Assembly: GCA_945890485.1 (NCBI GenBank)
Contig: CAMDCN010000025.1
Span: 1-64,000, forward strand
Reading direction: 5' to 3'
Length of the DNA: 64,000 nt
Origin: Candidatus Sulfopaludibacter sp. SbA3
Lineage (GTDB): Bacteria; Acidobacteriota; Terriglobia; Bryobacterales; Bryobacteraceae
Both the position numbers and the translations under genes were made by a program. The notes under the pieces are model-generated. The model was not told where the DNA came from. It worked only from the letters and a program-made list of their open reading frames with translations, and did not search any database. Shown one piece after another: positions 51,329 to 64,000 of this stretch (its first letter is position 1; each line of letters starts with the position of its first letter).

Positions 51329-52838
51329 AGATGTAGTTCCCATTCAAGAAAGCTCCGTCGAGGTGTTTGACTAAGCGGTAGTGCGTGCGAACCGCGTCCA
51401 ATTGGGTCTGGGGCAGCGAGGCGAGTTCGGCTGTCAGCCACTCCGGTTTCTGTGGGGCCGACACATCAAACGGCAGAATTACGGTGTCGAAGCGCCCGGC
51501 TTCGAGGTCTCGCTGTACCGGCCCCGGGTCGATCCGGCCAGCCTCCACGAGCAGCGAATAGATCAGCGTTTCCACCTCAATTCGGCCGCGCAGTTGCAGC
51601 GTGGCGTCATAGCTGCCTCCCAGCACACGGCTGTCGTCCGGACGGAGATATGGGCGCAACGACTCGATTTCGGCGGTCTTGACCGACTCGAATACGGCGC
51701 GTTCGGCGGCCGTGCGGGCCGTCAGCGTCAAATTCAAGGCGATATGCAGGACGATGGGGATCTGCAGGAGGGTGATGGGAGTCCGCCGATTGGCGATAAC
51801 GGCCGGAAAGAAACCCATCTGGCCAAGTCCCACCCCGGCGGCTATCGCAAGCAGCAGCGTCATTTCCAACTGGTAATTGAGGTCGGAGCCGATCTTCGGC
51901 GCTGTTAGCAGCCAAACGATAATCGAGAGCCCGGTGTACAAGACGAGGGGCCCTGCCCGGCGGGCGAGGGATGGCACACCGCATAGAAACGTGAGCAGCA
52001 GGCCGCCGGCGGTGAGCAGGAAGTATTGACCCTGATCGAGCAGCTTGGTACTGGCAAATGGATTCAGGTTCGCGAATATGGCGCTGTCGAGGTAAGCGCC
52101 GTGGGTAGCGATCTGAAGGACGGCGGCGATGGAGCCTCCGGCGAAGGCGACGGCGGGGATCCAACGGAACGCGGTCCGGCGATCCTCCCGGAGAAGGGTG
52201 AGCCCAATCGCGGCCCCGCTGGCGATCGCGGTCTGTTTCGTGAAGACCGCCAAGACCACAAAGATCGCGGCCAACCAGATGCTGCCATTTCCCGCCCGCC
52301 AGTCGAGAAAGGTGGAAAACGCGGCCAGCGAGCAGCAGACCGCCAGCATGTCGACTTGGCCAACCGTGCCCCAGTAGAGCAGGTTCGCGGTGGAGGCGGC
52401 GAGCAACAGGCCGGTGGCGCGGGCTGCCGCATCGCCGGGCACGAGTCGGCGCAGAATTCGCCAGCAGAACCAGAGCGCACCAAGCAGTGCCAGTATCGAG
52501 ATGCCGCGAGCGGCCAGGTAGATGGGCACTCCGAGACGGTCGAGCATAGCGCACAGGGAGTAATAGATCGGACCGTAGGCCGCTACGGTGTACGGATACT
52601 GATTCAGAGGGTGATAGAGCCCCTGACCCTGGGCAAACATATGCGAATGCAGCCCGACGATACCTTCCACCGGCGTCAGCCCGTTCTGAGCCCAGAGGGC
52701 GACGGCAAAGACGGCCACCAGCCCGAAAGCCGTGAGAATCGACGCCAATTGCAAGGCTCGATGGAGCCCGCGTTCCCGGACATCGGGACGAAGAACGGCG
52801 GATTCGGCGTCGGCATGCGCCAACTCGGGAGACAGCAT
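51309..52838 (-). CDS. Multi-span membrane glycosyltransferase (GT39/ArnT-like)
   Basis: This 509-residue protein has about 10-11 hydrophobic helices up to residue ~385 and a C-terminal soluble domain. The first large loop after helix 1 ([37 protein letters not shown]) has the acidic and Tyr residues expected of GT-C lipid-linked-sugar transferases. It probably uses polyprenyl-phosphate sugars at the outer face of the membrane. It heads the operon GT-C, methyltransferase, GT2, PFK. It is divergent from the giant metzincin gene, 163 bases away. Confidence 0.8.
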
Positions 52839-52956
52839 AAGCTTCTCCGGGAGGTATCGACCTTTTGGGCCGAAAACTTTACGCAGCTCCTACGACAAGC
52901 CTGGCCCGGCCTTGGCCCCGCGTCGCGGCCTACTCCCATGCAGAGTAAGCATACGT

Positions 52957-52993
52957 TATACTACTGCCACTCGAAATCTAAACTGTCCGGAGG
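52957..52993 (+). promoter_or_regulatory. -10 box and ribosome site of the giant metzincin gene
   Basis: TATACT at 52957-52962 is a good -10 element without a clear -35. GGAGG at 52989-52993 is eight bases before the ATG at 53002 and decides that start over the longer open frame upstream. Confidence 0.45.
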
Positions 52994-53001
52994 CTGACCG
53001 C

Positions 53002-56000
53002 ATGCTTCGACTCATACTTGTCGCAACCCTTTCGTTGCAGACGCTGATGGCGCAGTCGAATCCGGCGGAGTTCGCGAAGCTAGTCGGTTTTACTTTCGCA
53101 GATGGCGCACTTCCTGTTGAAAACACGACCGGCGAGTTCACGCTGGTGGGCCGGGATTCCCAGTTTCCATTACAGGCTGCCATCGTGGTCACCGTGCCTC
53201 GGGATGCCGTTCGCATCAGCGGAGGAGTCTTTTCGACGCCGATTCCCTACACGATCACGCTGACGGGAAGCGTCCGCCTGATCGGGGAGCGCGACGGAGA
53301 AGTTTTCGACGTGGAGGTGCGCGGCGGTGAATCGGGCGCTTGCGGTAGCGCTCCCCAGGTGTCCCGGCAGACCAATCTGGCGCGGGGCACTACAGTGAAT
53401 TTGAGTCTTCGCTTGTCCTGCACCCTGAGCAGCTTAAGCGGAACTGCGTTCAGCCGCCGGATTAGCGTAAATATCTTTCGCCGCAATGACAACAGATCCG
53501 TCAGTGAACCGGCAGTGACGACGACAGTTCGTTTCGAGCGCGGAACCCCATCGATGAGCTTGTGGGACGGGACGCGCATGATCCCAAACTCCGCCAGCAA
53601 CCCCGCGGTCGCGGCGATTTTGGAGACGCTGGACCCCAAGGCGCTTCGACTGCAAACCACCTTTTTTGATGACATCCCATGGCAAGTCAGGGTGGCGACA
53701 GAGTCCGGAGAGGACTGGCTCTCCATTCCGAGGGCCGGCGTCGTTCCAGCCAGGGGCTCGGCGGACATTGCGGTATCGGCCCGTCTTCTCCCCGGACTGC
53801 GGACAGACAATGCCACGGTAACCCTCTCAGCGGCAGGGATGCGGGATCTCAGCTTTCTTGTTCTTCTCGATCTGCCGCCGAATTCGATCCAGATCAGCTC
53901 CGTCACCCCGGACGCCACAGAACGTCTGTTGATCACGGAAGACATTCAGATTTCCGGAGAGGTGACGATGCGGTTAGGCGCGCTGCAGGCGATCCGGGAG
54001 GTCCAGGTACTTAGCGCGACCGGCGGGGTAATCGCATTCCAGCGAGCCTCTACGACCGGTGACCCCGCGACGGCGTCGTTTTCGATGCCGGCCTTCCGCG
54101 CGCCGACGGGAACTACCTCATTGCGGTTACGCGCCCGCTTGCTTGCGTTGGACGGGACGACACAACTGGCCGTTAGTCCGGAGATCCGCTACGAGGTTGT
54201 GGCGGGGAAAGACTCCGTGGAAATTCTTTCGGTGTCACCTCCGGCCGGTCCGGTGCCCGATCTCCTGAATCCGGTGTCGTTTTCGGCGATGGTGGCGTAC
54301 GAACATTTTCGGAGCGCGGCGACGGGTCTGGTGCTCGAGGTGGCCGACGAAGGAGGGGCCGTAGTGCGCCGGAGCGACCCGGTCACCGTGCTGATCGGGA
54401 GCGGGAGGCGCACTCTGACGCTCCCTGCGGTGACGATCCCGGTGGATAACCAGCGAATTTCGCTGTATGCCACATTGGTGGATGCAGGGACAGGCGCGAT
54501 TCTATTGCGGAGCACGCCCATTGTTTACGGCGCCCGGCCGGTGGATCTCGTGATCACGAGCCTTGAACCAGTCCAGGTACTGCATTATTTGCCGGGGCAA
54601 ATTCCTTTGGTGGCCGGGAAACCGACGGTAGTCCGGGTCTTCGTACGGGCCTTTGGCGGGTCCGGTCCCACGCCGGGGGTAACGGCTACATTGTCCGCGA
54701 AACTACCCGGGGGCGGCACTGCCTTGCCGGCGCTGATCCGGCCGTTTACCGAGCCGCTGACTCCGATCGCCGACCGGGTGGGAGAGGCTTTTATTGATGA
54801 AGAGAGCATCGACTTTAAGCTCAGTGACGACTGGGTAAAGACTCCGGGAGAGCTGGAGGTCACGGCAACTCTGGTCGTGCCGGCAACGGTGAACGATCTA
54901 CTACCCGCCAATAACTCGAAGACGGTGAAGATGACCCTGGTACCGGCGCCGTTCAGCCCGGAGGCCGCAGTCCCAGGTAAGTTGCGCATTGGTTGGCTGC
55001 CGCTTTGTTTTGGGCCGGATAATTGTGCGACGGGTCCGCTGCCGGGTAAGGAGTTCTTAGAGAAGGTTTACCCTTTGCCGGCGGGCAGCGTGGAGACGTT
55101 CCGGGCGGCCAAGCGAGCCACATTTCGGACGCAGCCATCAAGGGATGATTTCCCAGCAACTTTCAATGGTGAACTCGATTACGAATCGTCGGTGTTGGAA
55201 TGGGAAAGCGACATCGCTACGGCGGTCCGCGGTTTGTTCCGGCGATTTCCCGCCGAGGATAGGTATCGGATGGATCAGTTGGTGGCGATGCGACCGCGGC
55301 TGCCTGCAACTGACTATGCCGGCCTTGCGGACACGAGAAAGAACGGGGGAGAGGGCCGGACGATTTTGATGGTGGACGGGCAGACGGCGGGATTTGGCCG
55401 AAACGTGCTTGCCCATGAGGTCGGACATAATTTGGGATTGCGGCATGTTCCATTAGCCATGCCGCCGTTATGTAATAGAGTCGCGTCCGACGACGAATCA
55501 ACAGTCTGGTGGCCATACTCAGACCCGACAATTCAGTTTCCTGGCTACGATGCGTCTCTGGCAGTACCCCGGCGAGTTGAAGCTGCTACCAATTTCGACC
55601 TGATGTCGTACTGCGCGACGGCCGAAGCAGACAACATCTGGATTTCGCCATTCCATTACCTGACTCTCTTCAATAATCGATTGTCGCCGAGTTTGGCGCC
55701 GGGCACCCCTAAGGCAGCCGTCACGGTGGGCAAGGCGGCGGCTCAGGAGTATTGGGAGCTGCGAGGCACCGTGGCCAAAGACGGCTTGACCGGAACGCTG
55801 GCGCCGATCTTTCGATTGACGACCGAGTCGACGCCGTTGCCGACCGCGAGCGGCAGTCCCTATTGCGTTCGATTCTCGGGAGCCTCTGGCTTGCTGGGGA
55901 CGCACTGCTTTCCGCTATCGTTTCGGCATGAGGAATCGGGCAAGGAGCTGCGGCGGGCGGCGTTTTCATTCCTGGTCTCCTCGCCGGCCGGAACGACACG

Positions 56001-59000
56001 CGTCACGCTATTCAACGGGACGAGAGAACTCGCCGCTCTCGCGCCGGGGAGCCAGCCTCCGGCCGTGACTATAGTGACGCCACGAGCGGGAGAGCGCTGG
56101 GAAGCTACTTCGAGCCAGCAACTGGCATGGGCGGGCACAGGGTCGACAACACTGAGCTACCTGGCCGATTACAGTTTCGATGGAGGAAAGAACTGGATTC
56201 CGATCTCCCCCGAAACGACCGACACACGGCTCACGATCGATTCGAAGGAGCTGACCGGCGGCACCAACGTGTACTTCCGGGTAACAGTAAGCGATGGATT
56301 CTCCAATGCGGTGGCTCAGGTGGGCCCCATCACGATTGCGCAAACTCCTCGCTTGGCGGCGACGACGGGGACGTTGGACTTCCGCAAGACCGTGCTGGCG
56401 CAAAGTGCCGTGCAAGCCGCCACCATCACCAATACGGGCACCGGTCCGCTGCGCGTAACCGCTGCGGCATTTAGCGATGGGGTGTTTAGCTTGGTCTCGC
56501 CGGCGGTTCCGTTTGACGTGGAGGCCGGGGCGAACCAGCAAGTCGAAGTGCGATTCAATCCGCTGTCCGCAGGGGCGCGAGCGGGGATGTTGGCTCTGAC
56601 GAGCACGGGCGGAGCGGCGGAGATTCAGTTGCGCGGAACGGGGTTGGTGGAGACAGCCGCGGACGCCGAAGTGTCGCCGGGCAGCGTGGATTTTGGCGCA
56701 GTGCCGGTGGGCGGGTCGAAGACGATGACCGTGACGATTCGCAGCTTTGGTCCGGCGGCGCTGCGGGTAAGTTCGATGACCACTGCCGGGGCAGGCTTTC
56801 GCAGCGGCACGGCAGGCGCGTTGACGGTGGCGGCGGGAGCATCGCGAGTGGTGGAGGTGCAGTTCGGGCCTTCGGCGGTAGGGGCGCAGACGGGTACCCT
56901 GACGATTGCCACGAACGACCCCGCCAGGCCGAACATCGCGATTACCTTGCGGGCCACCGGCGTGGCGCCCGGCGCTGGAGGTGCGCCGGTGCCGCAGGTG
57001 GCGGCAGGCGGCGTGGTGAGCGCGGCCAGCTTTCTGGGGCCGTTATCGGCGGGACAAGTGGCGGTGCTGTTCGGAACGGAGCTAAGCCAGGGGACGGCGG
57101 CAGCATCGAGCGTTCCGTTGGCAACGCAATTGGCGGGAACACGTGTGCTGGTTGGGGGCACGGCGGCGCCGCTCTTCTACGTTTCACCTACGCAGATCAA
57201 CTTTCAGGTGCCGTTCGAAGCGACGGAGGGAAGCGTGCCCGTGCTGGTGGAACGGGACGGGATCGCAGGGCCAGCGGCGACGGTGACGGTGGCCGCCAGT
57301 TCGCTCGAGTTTTTCACCTACGCGCGAGCGGGCAGCGAGCGGGACCCGATCTTGGTGCATTTAGACAACTCCTTAGTGACTCCGGCAAATCCAGCGCGGG
57401 CAGGCGAGGTACTCCTCGGCTATGTGACTGGCTTGGGAGCGGTGAGCAACCGTCCGGCGTCCGGGGCGAGTTCTCCTGCAGCGCCTTTGGCGGCAGCGCT
57501 ACAACTGCCTGTGGTGACGTTGGGAGGAGCACCAGTGCCGGTGCTGTTCGCCGGCTTGACACCGGGCGGAGTAGGCCTTGGCCAGTTGAATCTACAACTG
57601 CCGGCAGCGTTGCCGGCCGGGGGATGTCTGCCGCTCGTCATGCGCGTGGGCGGGGTGCAGAGCCAGATCCGGAATCTGGCTACGACCGCGGATGGATGCA
57701 CGCAGGTGGCAGCGCCGCGGTTGGTCTTGGGCGCGGGCAGCGTCGAATTCGGTGGAGTCGCGGTAGGACAGACGGTGGACCGGACCGTGACTGTAAGCAA
57801 CGGCGGCACGGCGGGGTTGACCGTGACGGCATTGCGGTTGGACGGGCCGTTTGCCGTGGTTTCTCCGGCTACGCCCTTTTCACTGGCAGCGGGCGGGTCG
57901 CAAGTGGTGACGCTGCGCTTCCGGCCGGTTGCGGCAGGGGCGGCGGCGGGCAATCTGGTGGTGACGAGTAACGACCCCGGTTCGCCGGCGACGGTGACAG
58001 TGGCCGGTGTGGGACTAGCGGTAGCCGGGCAGCCGAGCTTGGGGGTTCCCGCATCGTTGGCGTTTGGCAGCGCCGTGGTGGGACAGGCTGTGACCGTAAC
58101 CGCTTCATTGGCGAATACCGGGACGGCGGAGCTGGCGGTGAGCGGTTTGGCAGTGACTGGGGCGGCGTTCTCGCTGGAGGGCGCTCCGACGCTTCCGTTT
58201 TCGATCGCGGCGGGGGGCCAGCGGGTCTTGAGCCTGCGGATGGCACCCGTGGCGGCAGGGGCGCAAATGGGCGAGTTGCGGGTAAGCAGTAATGATCCGG
58301 CTCGGCCAGCCACGGTGATCTCGTTAACGGGTACGGGTACGGCACCTGTAGTGAACAATCCAGTGCCCGTATTGGCTGCCCTGGTTCCGGGCTCGATCAC
58401 GGCAGGCAGCAGCGCATTTACGCTGACGGTTACGGGATCCGCATTCGCCACAGGGGCGACGGTGAATTGGAACGGATCGGCGCGGGCGACCACCTTCGTC
58501 AGCGCGACCCAGTTGCAAGCCACGGTACCGGCGGCGGACGTGGTGTTGCCGGGGACGGCGGAGGTCGCAGTGACGAATCCGGCGCCGGGCGGGGGGAGGT
58601 CGGCGATCAAGTTGATGGGGATCGGCCCGAGCGGGGGACCCGCCGTATTGGCCCAACAGTTTGCGGTGAGGTCCTGTCCCTTGCTGACGGCGTATGTCTC
58701 GGCGATTGACCGGGCCGGAAACGTAATCACCTCGCTGGGAACGGCGAACTTCCGGTGTAGTGAAGATGGCCAGCCGGTCAACTGCGCGGTGGAGCCCGCA
58801 TCGGCGGAGACCGGGATCTCCGTCGCGCTGGTAGTAGATACGGGAGTGACAGCCGGCGAGCTGGATACGGAGCGGACGGCGGCGGCAGCGGCCATTGCCC
58901 AACTGCTGCCGGACGATCGCGTGGCGCTCTACCAGGCGGGAAGCACGGAGGCTGTGATGGGCGGTTTCACCAGCAATAAGTCGTCGGTGATCAGCGCCCT

Positions 59001-59448
59001 GGGGGCGATCACGGCCGGGGGCACCGGCAGCGCGACCTACGATGCGATTGACGGGGCAATTCGGGGCTTAGCGGCACAAACGGGCCGAAGGAGAGCGGTG
59101 CTGGTATTGACTGGAACTGAAAACGTGACAGGCACGCTGCGCAGCTCGGCGGTGCTGCTTGAAAGAGCAAGAACGGCCGGGACGCCTATATTCGTGCTCT
59201 CCTTTGGCGCGGCCACCGGCACAGGAACGGTGATGCGGCAGTTGGCTCTAGACACCGCCGGCCAATACCTGGCTACGAGCGGTAATTTGGGTTTGCAGGC
59301 AGAGCGGGTAGGGCAAATTATGGCCAATCAGCATGTCGTTTCCTGGAGTTCATCCTTCCGCGATGGAGCGTTCCATGCGTTCGGCCTGACCTTTACCGGC
59401 TCGCAGGGTTCCGCGGGAACTACCGTGTATTTCCCGGCTTGCCGGTGA
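53002..59448 (+). CDS. Giant secreted chimeric metzincin with BACON, SPD-2-like, TIGR03437-like and VWFA domains
   Basis: This 2148-residue protein has a signal peptide ([18 protein letters not shown]). In order it shows: a BACON-like sandwich near 220-290 ([22 protein letters not shown]); a CARDB-like sandwich near 515-650; a metzincin zinc peptidase with [11 protein letters not shown] at 805-815 and Met-turn FDLMSYC (Met868); choice-of-anchor-D/SPD-2 repeats at about 1117-1316 and 1571-1780; a Solibacter-type TIGR03437-like domain at about 1330-1560; an IPT-like domain near 1785-1870; and a C-terminal acidobacterial VWFA domain ([21 protein letters not shown]-like [12 protein letters not shown]). 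All zinc ligands are present. It is probably a cell-surface or extracellular protease with adhesive modules. It is not joined to the next operon, 121 bases away. Confidence 0.85.
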
Positions 59449-59569: not shown

Positions 59570-59932
59570 TTGCTCACGATTCGTCCGCAACAGTTTCGAC
59601 GGCTGGAAGAATACATGTTCGACCAGTTTCTGGGCGAGTGCGCCAGGCTGGTGCGAGAGCGGCGTCCGGCGATGGCGGCGCGGTTGGGGGACGCAGCGGC
59701 GCTACGGGAGTTTGTTACGGCGTCGGTGAAACGCTGGCAGGCGCAGGGGTTCACCGAGCAGGGGCACCTGATGAAGCTGTTGGATTGGGAGTGTGAGTAC
59801 GGGGTGGGATTTCAAGACGAGCCACGGTGGGAGTGGCTGAACGCGATACTCGGGTTAACTCTCGCGCCTTCGAGCCGTATTTTCCGCGTTGAGAAACGAA
59901 TGGCACTTTTACGTGAAAGAGGGGAGCTATGA
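59570..59932 (+). CDS. Small helical protein heading the metallopeptidase operon
   Basis: This 120-residue protein is read from TTG 59570, with a strong GGAGGAG a few bases upstream. It is all-helical, with LTIRPQQFRRLEEYMFDQFLGECARLV at the start and FVTASVKRWQAQGFTEQGHLMKLLDWECEYGVGF after. This resembles, from memory, small proteins encoded beside VgrG/PAAR genes in type VI secretion effector clusters (LTI...Q...L start, then a helical bundle). If so, it may be an adaptor or chaperone. No secretion-machine gene is within the window. Its stop overlaps the next start by four bases. Confidence 0.65.
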   Translation: MLTIRPQQFRRLEEYMFDQFLGECARLVRERRPAMAARLGDAAALREFVTASVKRWQAQGFTEQGHLMKLLDWECEYGVGFQDEPRWEWLNAILGLTLAPSSRIFRVEKRMALLRERGEL

Positions 59933-60357
59933 ACACGGGGACCGAGCCTCGCCGGGGTGGCGTCGCCGGGGATCCGGTGGAGCCTTGCCCCGATGATGAT
60001 GATCTGGACGTCGTCTGCGATATCGAGGAAGAGGATGCCGATATCGAGTTGGAATGCGAGTCGGAAGAGGAAGAGGATCCTGATTTAGAGTTCGACTGCG
60101 GAGCGACCGACGTTGAACCGGCGGATGCGCCGATGGAGTCCCGGGCGAAAGATGGAGAGGCAGCCGAAGAGGAAGCCGAGGAAGAGGACGACGATCCGGA
60201 CCTGGACTTCGCGTGTGCCTTGGAAGAAGACGATGACGCCGATCTGGAATTCGAGTGCGATGCGGCGGACGACGATGAGGCGGATCTGGAATTGGATAGC
60301 GCCGTCGAAGATTCTGTAAACGAGCAAACGAGGGAAAGCGTCAACAGCAATGCCTGA
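59929..60357 (+). CDS. Highly acidic Cys-repeat protein
   Basis: This 142-residue protein is dominated by Asp and Glu. Six copies of a D-[LI]-[DE]-[FLV]-x-C motif occur at residues 25-30, 38-43, 52-57, 91-96, 105-110 and 119-124 (the last ends in Ser). Within each cluster of three they are spaced 13-14 residues apart, and the two clusters are split by a 33-residue linker. The alternating hydrophobic pattern suggests short beta strands with cysteines on one face, perhaps for metal or for disulfides. There is no signal peptide. The start overlaps the previous stop (ATGA), and the end overlaps the metallopeptidase start by eight bases. I know of no family match. Confidence 0.7.
   Translation: MNTGTEPRRGGVAGDPVEPCPDDDDLDVVCDIEEEDADIELECESEEEEDPDLEFDCGATDVEPADAPMESRAKDGEAAEEEAEEEDDDPDLDFACALEEDDDADLEFECDAADDDEADLELDSAVEDSVNEQTRESVNSNA
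60001..60300 (+). repeat. 42-base (14-residue) coding repeat in the acidic protein
   Basis: The protein repeat of 13-14 residues gives a DNA period of 39-42 bases in two groups (60001-60099 and 60199-60300). The DNA copies are diverged, so the repeat is kept at protein level rather than being a recent duplication. Confidence 0.6.
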
Positions 60358-62872
60358 TCCAAAGAAAGAAGACATTTTCGAAGAATCGACGTACAAGGTC
60401 ACGGCGACAATTAAGTCCGGGATGTTCAGCACGAAGTACAAGGGGAAGTTGGACCTGGTGTACAAGAAGGGCGATACCGTGCTGCATACGGACGCCAACG
60501 TGGACGTGAGTAAGGGAAAGGTGGAAAAGGACTATCTGGTGCCCAAGGTGCCGGATACGGAAGACACTTACGTCCTGAAAATCGTTGCCAACTACGGGAA
60601 GAAGAAAGAGAAGACGCTGGTGCTGACCGAGGCGACGGTTTGGCCCAAGACCCTCAAGATTACGGTTAAAGACACCGAAGGCAAAACGATCAAGGAGGTC
60701 CCCTTCGAGGTCCCCTTCGGTACCGGGCAGAAAGCGCGAGGCGACACCGACGACAACGGCGTCGGGAACGTGGACCTGCGGAAGTCGACCTACGAAATCA
60801 AGATCAAGAAGCCCTGGGAAGTCATCAGTGACAAGAACGACGCCAAGAAGCGGGAGCACGAGATTGTTGTCCGCCGGAATATGGAGGCGAAGATCCTGAA
60901 GCCGGATCTTACGAAGCCCTGCTGGTCGCCGTCTGTAGAGGGGGGAGACACGGCGGCGGGTGTGCGGCAATATGTGAACGCGCCGACAACGGGGGAGAAC
61001 GGTTGTGACGGCGATGGGAGCATCATCGAGTTTGAAGTGGCTTGCAAGAAGCTGACGGACGGGCTGAAGAACGACAAGATCTACATCAAGGTGGAGTTCT
61101 CAAAGCTGGGCGAACGGACGACTCCGGTGCCGACGCTGCTGGCGCCGGCGCAGGGGATTGCCAGCGCGGACGAAGGGAAGACGCTGACTGGCCACGTGCT
61201 GTTGGCGGCGGACGGCGGTACGGCGAAGTTCAAACTGCAGTTGGGGTATGCAGGCGGGGAGACGTTTACGGTCTCGGTCGGGTATTCCAAAGGTGACCCC
61301 ACGGATGATGCACAGACTTTCGTAACTTGGCGAAAAGTGACCTATCAGCTCCGCTTCCCGAAGTTGATGAAGGTGCGCATGACGGAGAAGACGCGGACGG
61401 ACGGGACGAAATACTTCGATCTTCCGGATGGTGTGTACAACGTCGCGAAAACGCGATTGGCGGCGGTGTTCGTAGAGTATAAGAACATCAAATCGCACGA
61501 GTTTGACCCACCTCCGGGGTCTCCGTGCCTGGTAACGCGTGGATATCTCGAAGATTCAGCCGATACGACGCCGGTGTACGTGATTGACGAAAACCTGGTG
61601 TGGCTGGGCGGGGCTCCCAACTTTGACGCCGTGGGTGACCAGCGGGAAACGACGATTACGCTTTGCGATGCGGCGCTTGATGAAGCCACGAAGATGGTGA
61701 ATCCAACGATTGAATTGACGGCCGTCGAAACGAAAGACGTCGTTATCGATACAGCGGTGAGCTATAAGTATTTCGTGAAAAGGCCGTTCCAAGCGAATAT
61801 GGTGAACCTGGAGGTGGCGGGCTATGAGTGGGTGGCGGCCATGGACAAGGTGGCCAATCCGGACAAGAACGTAAAGCCGACGGTGAAAGTAGAGTTCGTC
61901 ACCGAGGACCGGGAGGACTGGGACGAGTACGAAATTACGGAGCCGAATGCGGGCACGGGTTCAGTGGTCATCAACTTCACGGGCAACGATCCGTTAACCA
62001 CCGGGGACAAAACCAAGCTGAAAACGTTCTACGAGGCCTGCTTCAACAAGGCGAAGGAGATGCGTCAACAGAAGAACGTGCTGACGTTCAAGGTTTCCGG
62101 ACCGGCGGGCGTAGACGGGCACGACGTGCAACACAATGCGATTCGGTCGGAGTTCAACGCGATCCGGACGGCGTCGGCGAAAACTCTGCTCTACCATCCT
62201 GGACTGGACGACGACGGGAACCCGCGGAAGGGCCCGATGACGGATGTGACGATTGAGCATATGACCAGCCGGAAATTGAAATTTAAACTACCGGTGCGAG
62301 CGAACGACACCGAAGCATTGAAGCCAGGCGATTTTGTGGGTGCGGCATCGGCGACGAAGTGCCCGGTGAATGTGACGTATTCGATGATGGGCGCCTATAC
62401 CTACAATGGTCATGCGGGAGGTGGCAGTCAGGTGCTGGTGCTGCGCAACGTGATTCCAGAGGCGATCGCGGCCACCGTCTGCCATGAGTTGGGTCACGCG
62501 ATGGGGATGGCGGTGATGCCGCTGGCAACGGGAGCAGCGATACCGATGCCGCCGGGCGTGAGCGCGGACCTTTCCAAGCACGTGGACAACGGCGGGTGGT
62601 ATTACCGGAACAAGAGCGCCGCGCCCTACACAAATGGCTTTCGAGCGCTGCACCAAGGTCCGCACTGCAGTAACGGGATGCCGGCGCCAAAGAAGACGCA
62701 CCAGAAGTTTGACAGTTGGTCGCCGACTGGCGCTTCGCCGGCGTGCATTATGTGGGGTTCGGGCGGTGGCGAGGATTCCCGCACGCAGTACTGCGCGAAT
62801 TGCACGAAGATATTGAAGGCCCGCGATCTGCGCGACGTCCGGAAGACCTGGGCAGGGAGCGCCGAAGGATGA
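60350..62872 (+). CDS. Leaderless zinc metallopeptidase of the four-gene operon
   Basis: This 840-residue, Lys-rich protein has no signal peptide or membrane segment. The N-terminal ~650 residues look like several beta-sandwich modules (YKVTATIKSGMFSTKYKGKLDLVY; LKITVKDTEGKTIKEVPFEVPFG). The peptidase domain carries HELGHAMGM at 712-720. Further Cys/His follow in GPHCSNG, CIMWG and YCANCTKILKARDL, a pattern I associate with zinc peptidase effectors of contractile secretion systems. The lack of a leader beside an acidic partner and an exported partner suggests delivery by a dedicated machine or toxicity needing control. The target is unknown. It overlaps the genes on both sides (8 and 4 bases). 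Confidence 0.75.
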   Translation: MPDPKKEDIFEESTYKVTATIKSGMFSTKYKGKLDLVYKKGDTVLHTDANVDVSKGKVEKDYLVPKVPDTEDTYVLKIVANYGKKKEKTLVLTEATVWPKTLKITVKDTEGKTIKEVPFEVPFGTGQKARGDTDDNGVGNVDLRKSTYEIKIKKPWEVISDKNDAKKREHEIVVRRNMEAKILKPDLTKPCWSPSVEGGDTAAGVRQYVNAPTTGENGCDGDGSIIEFEVACKKLTDGLKNDKIYIKVEFSKLGERTTPVPTLLAPAQGIASADEGKTLTGHVLLAADGGTAKFKLQLGYAGGETFTVSVGYSKGDPTDDAQTFVTWRKVTYQLRFPKLMKVRMTEKTRTDGTKYFDLPDGVYNVAKTRLAAVFVEYKNIKSHEFDPPPGSPCLVTRGYLEDSADTTPVYVIDENLVWLGGAPNFDAVGDQRETTITLCDAALDEATKMVNPTIELTAVETKDVVIDTAVSYKYFVKRPFQANMVNLEVAGYEWVAAMDKVANPDKNVKPTVKVEFVTEDREDWDEYEITEPNAGTGSVVINFTGNDPLTTGDKTKLKTFYEACFNKAKEMRQQKNVLTFKVSGPAGVDGHDVQHNAIRSEFNAIRTASAKTLLYHPGLDDDGNPRKGPMTDVTIEHMTSRKLKFKLPVRANDTEALKPGDFVGAASATKCPVNVTYSMMGAYTYNGHAGGGSQVLVLRNVIPEAIAATVCHELGHAMGMAVMPLATGAAIPMPPGVSADLSKHVDNGGWYYRNKSAAPYTNGFRALHQGPHCSNGMPAPKKTHQKFDSWSPTGASPACIMWGSGGGEDSRTQYCANCTKILKARDLRDVRKTWAGSAEG

Positions 62873-63996
62873 GCGGCGGCGCCCCAATCCGTGCGTTGCA
62901 TTGCGGCTTGGTGGCGGCGGGCCTATTGTTGGCCCAAACCGGTTCGAGAGAAGGCGCGAGGAAACTTATGACGAATGAATTGGAAGCGGTCCGTTTGCCG
63001 GACAGTTCGTTTTGGGAGACGGGCTCCCGGGACCACGGTTTGGATCCGCTGGTGAAGAAGTACAAGACTTCGCACTTTGGGATTCTGATTGATGGTCCGC
63101 GCGAGGTGGTTTTGTCGAGCCGGGATACGCTGCCGGTGTTCACTTACTACATGGGCAGCTATAAGCAAACGGCTCAACGAGATTTCCCGCGGGTGGCTTC
63201 GCTTGTGGTGATGGACCCGGATCGAAATCATATTCATGTGGCGCCGTTCCTGGAGAAGCGGGGCGAGTCGTTGTTAACGGATGAGACGGAGCCGGAGGCG
63301 AATCTGCCGAATGGGTACCAGATGACGTTTCAGCAGGTGGATGTGCGGCGGCGGACGGAGTTGCCGTGGGCGGCGGGACGCTTCCTTTCGCAGGTGCTGC
63401 TGATGGATCTGTCCTCGAACCGGTTGGAGACGAAGTTGATCGCGGGGAGCGGGGCGTTTTCAGATCCGGAGAAAGAGAAGTTCTTGGCGGAGGAGCGGGC
63501 GAAGAAGGATCCGCCTGCGCCGTTTCCGGCGGCTAGCACGGCTTTGGCCGAAGCTCCGCCGATTCCGGAGGAGATGGGGATCACGTTAGCAGCTCCGCGA
63601 GTGGTGGTGCTCGAGAAGCAGGGGAAATTGGAGTTAAGCGGAGCGTGGCGGCTGCCCGTGCTGCCCGAGGAGTTGGTGAAGCCCGCGCATGCCGAATACA
63701 ACAAGGCGAACGGGTTGATGCAGAAAGAGGGCGGCGCCTACGCGGCTTGCGTGGGCCTGCACTTGGTAGTGCTGAGCAGCGAAGAGGACGTTCCGAATCT
63801 TTACACGCTGCGGCTGCCGGTGGCGAAGGTGGAGATGGTGGACGGCAAGCCGGTGGCCAGCGGGAAGTTTACGGTGGATCTGCTGCAGATGCCAGACTTC
63901 CCGGTGGGAGAAGAGACGCTGTTTCTCTATGCCTACGGCAAGGAGTGGGCGAGCGAGCCGGCTGCGATTGGGGTGGTGGACCGGCGGCAGCAGTAG
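62869..63996 (+). CDS. Exported protein of unknown function, possible immunity or partner
   Basis: This 375-residue protein starts at ATG 62869, overlapping the metallopeptidase stop by four bases (ATGA). The N-terminus (APIRALHCGLVAAGLLLAQ) is a probable signal peptide, so it acts in the envelope. The body is mixed alpha/beta with strands such as HFGILIDGPREVVLS, ASLVVMDPDRNHIHVAPF and APRVVVLEKQGKLELSGAWRLPV. No family is recognised. As the last gene after a putative toxic peptidase, with export opposite to its leaderless partner, it fits an immunity protein, but this is inference. It ends four bases before the window end, so the operon may continue beyond. Confidence 0.7.
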   Translation: MSGGAPIRALHCGLVAAGLLLAQTGSREGARKLMTNELEAVRLPDSSFWETGSRDHGLDPLVKKYKTSHFGILIDGPREVVLSSRDTLPVFTYYMGSYKQTAQRDFPRVASLVVMDPDRNHIHVAPFLEKRGESLLTDETEPEANLPNGYQMTFQQVDVRRRTELPWAAGRFLSQVLLMDLSSNRLETKLIAGSGAFSDPEKEKFLAEERAKKDPPAPFPAASTALAEAPPIPEEMGITLAAPRVVVLEKQGKLELSGAWRLPVLPEELVKPAHAEYNKANGLMQKEGGAYAACVGLHLVVLSSEEDVPNLYTLRLPVAKVEMVDGKPVASGKFTVDLLQMPDFPVGEETLFLYAYGKEWASEPAAIGVVDRRQQ

Positions 63997-64000
63997 CATG

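What the first reader, a model, noticed from the sequence alone, without database searches (positions are those of the whole stretch)
59570..63996. Four-gene overlapping operon: helical adaptor-like, acidic Cys-repeat, leaderless metallopeptidase, exported partner
Seen: four genes overlap by 4, 8 and 4 bases; the third encodes HELGH and has no leader; the fourth has a signal peptide; the second is an unfamiliar acidic repeat protein. Inference: an effector (peptidase) with adaptor, charge-neutralising or metal-handling chaperone, and periplasmic immunity protein, perhaps cargo of a type VI or other contractile system. I know of no described system with this gene order.
Basis: partly seen in the sequence, partly recalled or inferred. 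Interest (0 to 1): 0.78.

Follow-up and report, generated by a model that had tools for sequence, protein, structure and literature searches.

The report
Type VI secretion metallopeptidase effector cassette
Four tightly coupled genes of a soil-type Acidobacterium most likely encode a zinc peptidase fired into rival cells by a type VI secretion system, with a docking helper, a small tether and an exported self-protection protein; the helper looks like one half of a known loading adaptor that here has become its own gene.

Summary
In detail: four genes at 59570-63996 overlap by 4, 8 and 4 bases, and the tight coupling recurs in diverged copies. g3 encodes a leaderless zincin, g4 a partner that looks exported. 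Both occur together in 4 of 61 related genomes (5 loci); a diverged zincin-g4 pair lies in a fifth. g1 belongs to a wider family with no Pfam model. In 11 of 11 Acidobacteriota loci fetched outside the window's family it lies near the type VI secretion (T6SS) adaptor gene DUF4123, in 10 also near VgrG; within genus and family such core genes are in view at only 3 of 18 loci. Its model best matches the T6SS adaptor Tap3 (E 0.24), and neighbouring DUF4123 proteins are short, as if lacking Tap3's helical C-lobe. The genome has a T6SS, though not next to this cassette. I conclude: an orphan T6SS effector-immunity cassette. g1 is probably a stand-alone adaptor C-lobe, g2 a tether, g3 a metzincin-like toxin, g4 a periplasmic immunity protein. 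New: the split adaptor and a Pro/Cys leader on proteins encoded after g1. No function was measured.

The parts
59570..59932 (+). g1: 120-aa all-helical protein (by model) of a family linked to T6SS spike genes; probable stand-alone equivalent of the helical C-lobe of DUF4123/Tap adaptors
59929..60357 (+). g2: 142-aa acidic repeat protein with an N-terminal PC leader; probable tether/carrier between g1 and g3
59974..59988 (+). PVEPC leader motif of g2 (residues 16-20; PVLPC in the G011 and C3 copies)
60350..62872 (+). g3: 840-aa leaderless zincin; Ig/prealbumin-like N-terminal part (weak model), central 'GG[DE]xF...WRK' module, C-terminal peptidase; probable T6SS effector
62483..62497 (+). HELGH zinc-binding/catalytic motif (residues 712-716), invariant in 5 homologues
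62663..62668 (+). H772-C773: candidate displaced third zinc ligand (H768 is a second candidate) and first structural Cys; all invariant in 5 homologues
62744..62803 (+). C799-I-M801 (Met-turn-like) to C815-x2-C818: order of the archaemetzincin Cys4 site
62869..63996 (+). g4: 375-aa partner with an exported look; probable periplasmic immunity protein
62869..62937 (+). hydrophobic, signal-peptide-like N-terminus of g4 (judged by eye); kept as a type, not as a sequence, in the three other complete copies
63998..64000 (+). first bases of a CorA-like gene (named by eye) that starts right after g4 and runs past the window

Best explanation
The four genes form an orphan type VI secretion effector-immunity cassette. 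g3 is a metzincin-like zinc peptidase injected into neighbouring cells. g1 is the loading adaptor: a free-standing version of the effector-recognising helical C-lobe that other bacteria fuse to DUF4123 (Tap) adaptors. g2 is a small tether that occupies the slot held elsewhere by leader/TTR carrier proteins; its N-terminal PC leader is recognised during loading, and its acidic strand-like repeats hold g3, perhaps by strand pairing with g3's Ig-like N-terminus. g4 is exported and protects the producer's periplasm. Shown here: gene order, overlaps, conservation, motifs, spread, neighbours, a T6SS in the genome. Inferred: T6SS delivery, g1-g2-g3 contacts, peptidase activity, site of action, export of g4, immunity.
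For: (1) T6SS in the genome: TssE-, TssF-, TssG-, ClpV-, VgrG- and PAAR-type genes and TssC on contig C12. (2) g1 family: 14 of 396 phylum genomes. I fetched loci of 11 of the 13 others: 11 of 11 have DUF4123, 10 of 11 VgrG, 8 of 11 PAAR in the stretch; typical order VgrG-DUF4123-PAAR-g1-effector-like gene. DUF4123 occurs in 12 of 297 phylum genomes; 11 of those 12 are g1-positive, and in 10 the two genes lie within 1 kb. Each of the 21 family members is recovered by a profile built without it (the cassette g1s left out together), E 6e-16 or better, best other gene E 0.5. Sagittula and Sinorhizobium plasmids show DUF4123, then a g1-like gene, then a nuclease- or toxin-like gene and an SMI1-like gene. 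(3) The g1 model (pLDDT 70) matches Tap3 first in the PDB, Foldseek probability 0.99, next best 0.11; Tap3's C-terminal domain is a five-helix bundle; 12 DUF4123 proteins from g1 loci are 171-188 aa long. (4) Bridges: the own-genome g1 on C7 is 33% identical (1e-27) to the T6SS-embedded g1 of G303, with the same TTR, LysM/PGB, HExxH order behind it; g3 shares a central module, and weakly the CxM...CxxC tail, with the T6SS-embedded zincin of G303. (5) HExxH in 16 of 57 genes (>=200 aa) after g1 against 9 of 173 control genes; without the g3 cassettes 12 of 49 (p 2e-4). (6) g4 beside g3 in 4 of 4 g3 genomes and beside a diverged zincin in G034.
Against: No VgrG, PAAR, DUF4123 or sheath gene was found near this cassette. 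Of 18 other g1 loci in the genus and family (16, 2), core T6SS genes (VgrG or DUF4123) are in view in 3, carriers only (TTR or LysM/PGB) in 3 more, none in 12; some of these contigs are short. The only DUF4123 hit of the genome is on C1, at the start of a long protein, so what g1 docks on here is open. The Tap3 match has Foldseek E 0.24 and no sequence support: the g1 profile does not list Tap3 in the PDB even at E 10; an undoubted DUF4123 protein does not list it either. g3's candidate third His lies 50 residues beyond the place that the metzincin signature demands, and no Pfam cut-off is reached. The tail comparison of g3 with its sister zincins has E 0.008 but probability only 5%. The g4-like gene of G034 shows no signal peptide as it stands. 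Short DUF4123 genes without a gene of g1 size annotated after them exist (Azospirillum twice, Eleftheria). G232 has DUF4123 but no g1 match listed.
Confidence: 0.7

Rival explanations
1. g2 is a trans-acting inhibitor or folding chaperone of g3 (a propeptide-like, cysteine-switch or charge-shielding protein) that keeps the peptidase silent in the producer's cytoplasm, and not a tether.
For: g2 is extremely acidic with Cys in many of its strand-like units and lies next to g3 in all five copies; the first 180 residues of g3 are basic in three copies; leaderless peptidases need control in the cytoplasm (general knowledge).
Against: A PC, CP or CC leader like that of g2 stands at the N-terminus of 17 of 26 first genes after g1 outside the cassettes (12 of 173 controls), among them proteins without HExxH such as those of L078, L081, L088, L091 and L130. 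Cys number falls from 6 to 3 in two copies. g3's N-terminal part is not basic in G011.
Confidence: 0.25
2. g4 is not an immunity protein but a co-exported partner or substrate-side factor, and the operon is a housekeeping secreted-peptidase system.
For: g4 has no known family; a CorA-like gene follows directly; g4 is larger than most immunity proteins (general knowledge).
Against: g3 has no leader while g4 looks exported; patchy presence in 4 of 61 relatives; T6SS linkage of g1; several other g1 loci also end in a partner gene without a known family.
Confidence: 0.15
3. g1 is only an arbitrary helical bundle; its likeness to the Tap3 C-lobe is convergence, and g1 binds VgrG or PAAR in another way.
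For: Foldseek E 0.24, model pLDDT 70 from 3 sequences; no sequence match; profile comparison with two long DUF4123 proteins gives only E 0.07 and 0.32, probability below 1%.
Against: A search of 350,542 chains that knew nothing of T6SS put a T6SS adaptor first, far ahead of the next by probability; the two weak profile alignments fall in the parts after the DUF4123 domain; DUF4123 neighbours are short.
Confidence: 0.35
4. The peptidase is loaded on a different contractile or export system, or is a toxin-antitoxin-like or anti-phage module.
For: The cassette itself is not linked to spike genes.
Against: No PADLOC match for g1, g3 or g4 at E 0.01; g1 linkage to T6SS genes across the phylum.
Confidence: 0.08

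Closest known systems
Tap3-Tke5 (DUF4123 adaptor with effector, Pseudomonas putida; PMC12909789, passages read)
   Same: Adaptor gene before effector and immunity genes; g1 model resembles Tap3, whose C-terminal domain is a five-helix bundle that contacts the effector.
   Different: Tap3 joins both lobes in one chain; here DUF4123 and the helical part are separate genes, and g1 has no DUF4123 match. Tke5 is a MIX pore-former, g3 a zincin.
VgrG2b C-terminal metallopeptidase with PA0261, Tpe-Tpi family (PMC6899460, passages read)
   Same: HExxH zinc peptidase delivered by T6SS, toxic in the periplasm, with a periplasmic immunity protein; a TTR-like fold ahead of the peptidase.
   Different: VgrG2b domain is thermolysin-like and fused to VgrG; g3 is metzincin-like, free, and matched no PDB chain by sequence.
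RIX-TTR secreted adaptor with Rte1-Rti1 (PMC10435454, abstract and section 9 read)
   Same: Three-gene order tether-effector-immunity; tether carries a loading leader plus a strand-rich part predicted to complete a fold with the effector's N-terminus.
   Different: g2 has acidic repeats and a PC leader, no match in Pfam or NCBIfam, and is preceded by g1.
Archaemetzincin, peptidase family M54 (PMC3427221, abstract start and passages read)
   Same: Order HExxHxxG, H-C, C-x-M, C-x-x-C, with Cys4 zinc site and Met-turn.
   Different: 52 residues between G and the candidate His instead of 2, 25 instead of 4 to the next Cys, 13 instead of 17 before CxxC; no M54 hit in the Pfam scan.
LysM/PG_binding and DUF2345 carriers in vgrG loci (PMC10673891, abstract and section 7 read)
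   Same: Carrier proteins between VgrG and effector; LysM/PGB carriers occur behind g1 in the genus.
   Different: The cassette has g2 in that place.
Listeria metzincin with a TIMP-like lipoprotein (PMC8235301, search listing only)
   Same: A metzincin next to a protein that may inhibit it.
   Different: Phage-derived, secreted, not a T6SS cassette; no sequence compared here.

Membership tests
T6SS cargo effector with immunity | T6SS present in the genome | tested here: met
T6SS cargo effector with immunity | Encoded next to VgrG, PAAR, Hcp or a known adaptor | tested here: not met
   no VgrG, PAAR or DUF4123 hit in C25:50001-79690, VgrG and DUF4123 only on other contigs; Hcp not searched; met for the g1 family elsewhere
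T6SS cargo effector with immunity | Effector gene followed by a cognate partner gene that co-occurs with it | tested here: met
T6SS cargo effector with immunity | T6SS-dependent secretion and neutralisation by the partner | not testable with these tools
   needs bench work
DUF4123/Tap adaptor (for g1) | Match to PF13503 | tested here: not met
DUF4123/Tap adaptor (for g1) | Fold of the helical C-lobe | tested here: inconclusive
   Foldseek first hit Tap3, probability 0.99, E 0.24, model pLDDT 70; the part of Tap3 aligned is not printed
Metzincin clan (for g3) | HExxHxxGxxH plus Met-turn | tested here: inconclusive
   HExxHxxG and C-I-M present and invariant, third His displaced; 8 sister zincins chosen for their motif have HExxHxxxxxH-CxM-CxxC and match serralysins, ADAM17 and 3lmc by profile, E 1e-5 to 6e-3
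Archaemetzincin M54 (for g3) | HEXXHXXGXXHCX4CXMX17CXXC spacing | tested here: not met
   same order, other spacing
VgrG2b/Tpe metallopeptidase | Sequence match to the solved family structure | tested here: not met
   no PDB chain at E 1 for the g3 profile
RIX/MIX/FIX secreted adaptor (for g2) | Recognisable RIX, MIX or FIX domain | tested here: inconclusive
   no Pfam or NCBIfam hit for g2; I did not check that all three domains have models there

The most novel reading that the evidence does not exclude
Acidobacteriota, and some Alphaproteobacteria, have split the Tap adaptor of type VI secretion in two: a short DUF4123 lobe that stays with the spike genes and a free helical lobe (g1) that is handed out with each effector cassette, near or far from the spike. 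The effector side carries a matching Pro/Cys leader, in this cassette on a separate acidic beta-repeat tether (g2). This lets one T6SS serve many orphan effectors, chiefly a new class of metzincin-like peptidase toxins.
Probability: 0.4. Interest if true: 0.75.

Novelty: new variant of a known kind. Interest (0 to 1): 0.6.

Why it matters
T6SS effectors lack a universal signal, so orphan effectors are hard to find. The g1 family plus the PC leader would be a new handle for finding them in Acidobacteriota, a soil phylum with little T6SS work in the library searched (8 papers held all four terms). A split adaptor would also help to show which half of the Tap protein reads the effector, a question on which the Tap3-Tke5 and Tap6 work differ (passages). 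Metzincin-like T6SS toxins would be a further peptidase class beside VgrG2b; of the 10 papers that held both 'type VI secretion' and 'metzincin', none describes such an effector in its title or the start of its abstract.

Tried and rejected
Pfam and NCBIfam scans of the four proteins, and a PADLOC scan of g1, g3 and g4, gave nothing above cut-off. AlphaFold of g3 from 5 sequences failed for the peptidase part (mean pLDDT 47); its Foldseek hits to prealbumin/Cna_B-like pilin domains presumably rest on the better-modelled N-terminal part and have low whole-model TM, so I use them only as a hint. A PDB profile search with g3 gave nothing. The phylum search with the G034 zincin found nothing, but that sample held no genome known to carry it; plasmid searches with it and with the G002 g1 found nothing. 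The idea that the exported partners of L079 and L126 are homologous failed (BLASTP E 0.36), although their zincins are homologous (6e-14). Five other HExxH proteins after g1 (L079, L080, L126, L127, L128) lack the Cys tail and were left out of the zincin profile. A cysteine-switch role for the PC motif was dropped because genes after g1 without HExxH carry it. The 'WRK' module pattern was drawn from the sequences it was then counted in, so it is descriptive only. In one search four of 34 g1 loci gave no downstream gene chain (L085, L089, L094, L129) and were dropped from the leader count; L015 counted as a miss because its 71-aa g2 was not picked. The control genes wrongly include the g3 of the C3 copy, which lowers the contrast. 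Six of the 16 loci outside the cassettes had E above 0.001 (L087-L092, among them the two VgrG-linked ones); one search was run to test them and supports all six.
Full report
What is there. The four genes and their overlaps are real. The window is the first 64,000 bases of a 79,690-base contig (C25) of a 7.1-Mb draft genome. The remaining 15.7 kb hold a gene that looks like CorA directly after g4 and then ordinary genes by eye; queries for VgrG, PAAR, DUF4123, DcrB and LysM/PGB proteins found nothing in C25:50001-79690.

Copies elsewhere. g3 was found in 4 of 61 related genomes, all in the same genus, at 54-86% identity over nearly the full length, five places in all because the window's genome has a second copy on contig C3. 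In a phylum-wide sample of 396 genomes only the window's own matched. g4 was found in 5 of 61: the same four genomes (in G001 in two pieces at contig ends) and G034, another genus of the family. There, the gene before the g4-like gene ends in HEIGH...GGHC...CCVM...FCDMC, a diverged version of the g3 tail. The profile comparison supports the g4 match (E 3e-9) and gives a local match for g3 in its middle part (E 1e-5, probability 81%). So the pair holds together while the sequences drift apart.

g1 is the key. A profile from four cassettes matched 11 of 61 relatives at E 0.001 or better; all 11 of these genomes have VgrG, as do 41 of the 61. I fetched 16 g1 loci outside the g3 cassettes (15 from the genus, one, G030, from the family), six of them with E above 0.001. 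In 5 of the 16 a T6SS marker lies in the fetched stretch: VgrG in L088 and L091, DUF4123 in L091 and L080, a DcrB-type gene in L080, a protein like the VgrG tail in L089, LysM/PGB carriers in L088, L089 and L077. A wider profile of 21 sequences matched 14 of 396 phylum genomes and five places in the window's own genome. Of the two further own-genome loci one (C7, L137) has TTR and LysM/PGB carriers and one (C1, L136) no marker. So within genus and family, core T6SS genes are in view in 3 of 18 loci and carriers alone in 3 more. Leave-out tests recover all 21 members at E 6e-16 or better, while the best of the control and downstream genes scores E 0.5; a profile without the six weak ones finds the 13 Acidobacteriota loci at E 7e-9 or better, Sinorhizobium at 7e-5 and Sagittula at 0.003.

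Outside the family the link is plain. Of the 13 other g1 genomes I fetched 11 loci: 11 of 11 have DUF4123, 10 of 11 VgrG (one only as its tail at a contig end, one on the other strand), 8 of 11 PAAR in the stretch. DUF4123 itself was found in 12 of 297 phylum genomes; 11 of the 12 are g1-positive, and in 10 of those the two genes lie within 1 kb; the twelfth, G232, has no g1 match listed. No Pfam or NCBIfam family matches more than one of the 21 sequences, and those single matches have E 0.006-0.09. Related genes follow DUF4123 on plasmids of Sagittula (annotated VgrG, DUF4123, hypothetical protein, HNH endonuclease, SMI1/KNR4) and Sinorhizobium (unannotated; my reading of its frames); a third, in Tritonibacter, precedes HNH and SMI1 genes without DUF4123 in view.

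What g1 may be. AlphaFold from three sequences gives six helices, pLDDT 70, pTM 0.58. Foldseek against 350,542 PDB chains puts Tap3 (9r8g_B) first: probability 0.99, TM 0.58 by query length, E 0.24; the next best probability is 0.11 and nothing reaches E 0.001. Tap3 is the DUF4123 adaptor of a P. putida T6SS toxin, with an alpha/beta N-domain (1-198) and a five-helix C-domain (199-302); the C-lobe of a related adaptor, Tap6, was proposed to read the effector, whereas in Tap3 a loop of the N-domain makes 54% of the contacts (PMC12909789, passages). The search did not print which part of Tap3 aligned; the C-domain is my inference from helix content and length. Twelve DUF4123 proteins from g1 loci (L126-L135, L080, L091) are 171-188 aa; that of L138 sits in a 341-aa frame with another domain in front. 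Two plasmid DUF4123 proteins go on for another 100 residues or more (Spartinivicinus 294 aa, Thioclava 351 aa); the gene after the Thioclava one is not g1-like by profile and the one after the Spartinivicinus one is far too long. Short ones without a gene of g1 size after them also exist (Azospirillum twice, Eleftheria), so the link is strong in Acidobacteriota but not a law. Sequence evidence for the C-lobe is weak: E 0.07 and 0.32 for the two long proteins, both falling behind the DUF4123 domain.

What follows g1. Among 57 downstream genes of at least 200 aa, 16 carry HExxH, against 9 of 173 control genes in the same stretches (p 1e-5); without the g3 cassettes 12 of 49 (p 2e-4). Eight of these zincins, chosen for their tail, share HExxHxxxxxH, CxMxY and CxxC as invariant columns, and their profile finds serralysins (1e-5), ADAM17 (0.005) and 3lmc (0.006) in the PDB (that 3lmc is an archaemetzincin is recalled). 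Five others have HExxH without this tail. g3 has HELGHAMG, then H772-C773 after an insert, C799-I-M801, C815-x2-C818, all invariant in five homologues; the tails align weakly (E 0.008, probability 5%). The consensus of archaemetzincins, HEXXHXXGXXHCX4CXMX17CXXC, has this order with other gaps (PMC3427221, abstract start and passages). g3 also shares a 'GG[DE]xF...WRK' module with other g1-linked proteins, including the zincin of G303 that lies inside a T6SS locus. The G303 g1 is 33% identical to the orphan g1 of the window's own contig C7, and both are followed by TTR, LysM/PGB and HExxH genes. This links orphan cassettes to T6SS-embedded ones.

g2. The first protein after g1 has PC, CP or CC in its first 60 residues in 20 of 30 loci, against 12 of 173 controls; without the cassettes 17 of 26. 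g2 shares it as PVEPC/PVLPC. In L089, L134 and L137 the same place is held by a protein that matches the tail of VgrG (TTR-like; the name is from general knowledge and weak Pfam hits). I therefore read g2 as a tether. The closest worked example is the RIX-TTR secreted adaptor, first gene of a three-gene operon with effector and immunity (PMC10435454, section 9). g2 length varies between copies (71 to 168 aa with my starts).

g4. The four complete copies begin with a hydrophobic stretch of differing sequence. This was judged by eye; hydropathy peaks of similar height occur elsewhere in the same proteins. The known parallel is VgrG2b and its periplasmic immunity protein PA0261 (PMC6899460, passages).

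Mechanism and novelty. The most likely reading is a T6SS metallopeptidase effector with adaptor, tether and periplasmic immunity. The kind is known; the split adaptor lobe, the PC leader and the metzincin-like toxin class would be new. In the rows listed I saw no title or abstract start describing a stand-alone Tap C-lobe or a metzincin T6SS effector; several of those lists were cut, and the library lacks most subscription papers. No step of function is proven here.

Noticed in passing
window 52732-59448: A 2238-aa protein with [11 protein letters not shown] and repeats that look Ig-like by eye lies just upstream of g1; a second, unrelated metzincin-like protein.
   Followed up: no
L005 46-861 (G000:C25, from base 63998): A CorA-like gene (named by eye) starts 1 base after g4; same neighbour in G009 and G001, another gene after the C3 copy.
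   Followed up: partly
G000:C1:171304 (L154): The only DUF4123 hit of the genome is the N-terminus of a long protein that looks Ig-like, not beside the VgrG on C12.
   Followed up: partly
G000:C15:94232-95080 (L162): A second, more distant TssC-like match (E 2e-58) in the window's genome.
   Followed up: no
L153 and L155: In G232 and G231 DUF4123 stands behind what looks by eye like a forkhead-associated domain, so adaptor and phospho-reader would share a chain.
   Followed up: no
L103 1827-1876: In G034 the ATGA after the zincin is not in frame with the g4-like gene, which shows no signal peptide as it stands; draft contig of 3,200 bases.
   Followed up: no
L136 8357-14584 (G000:C1): Another own-genome g1 is followed by a 2075-aa protein without HExxH; candidate effector of unknown type.
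   Followed up: no
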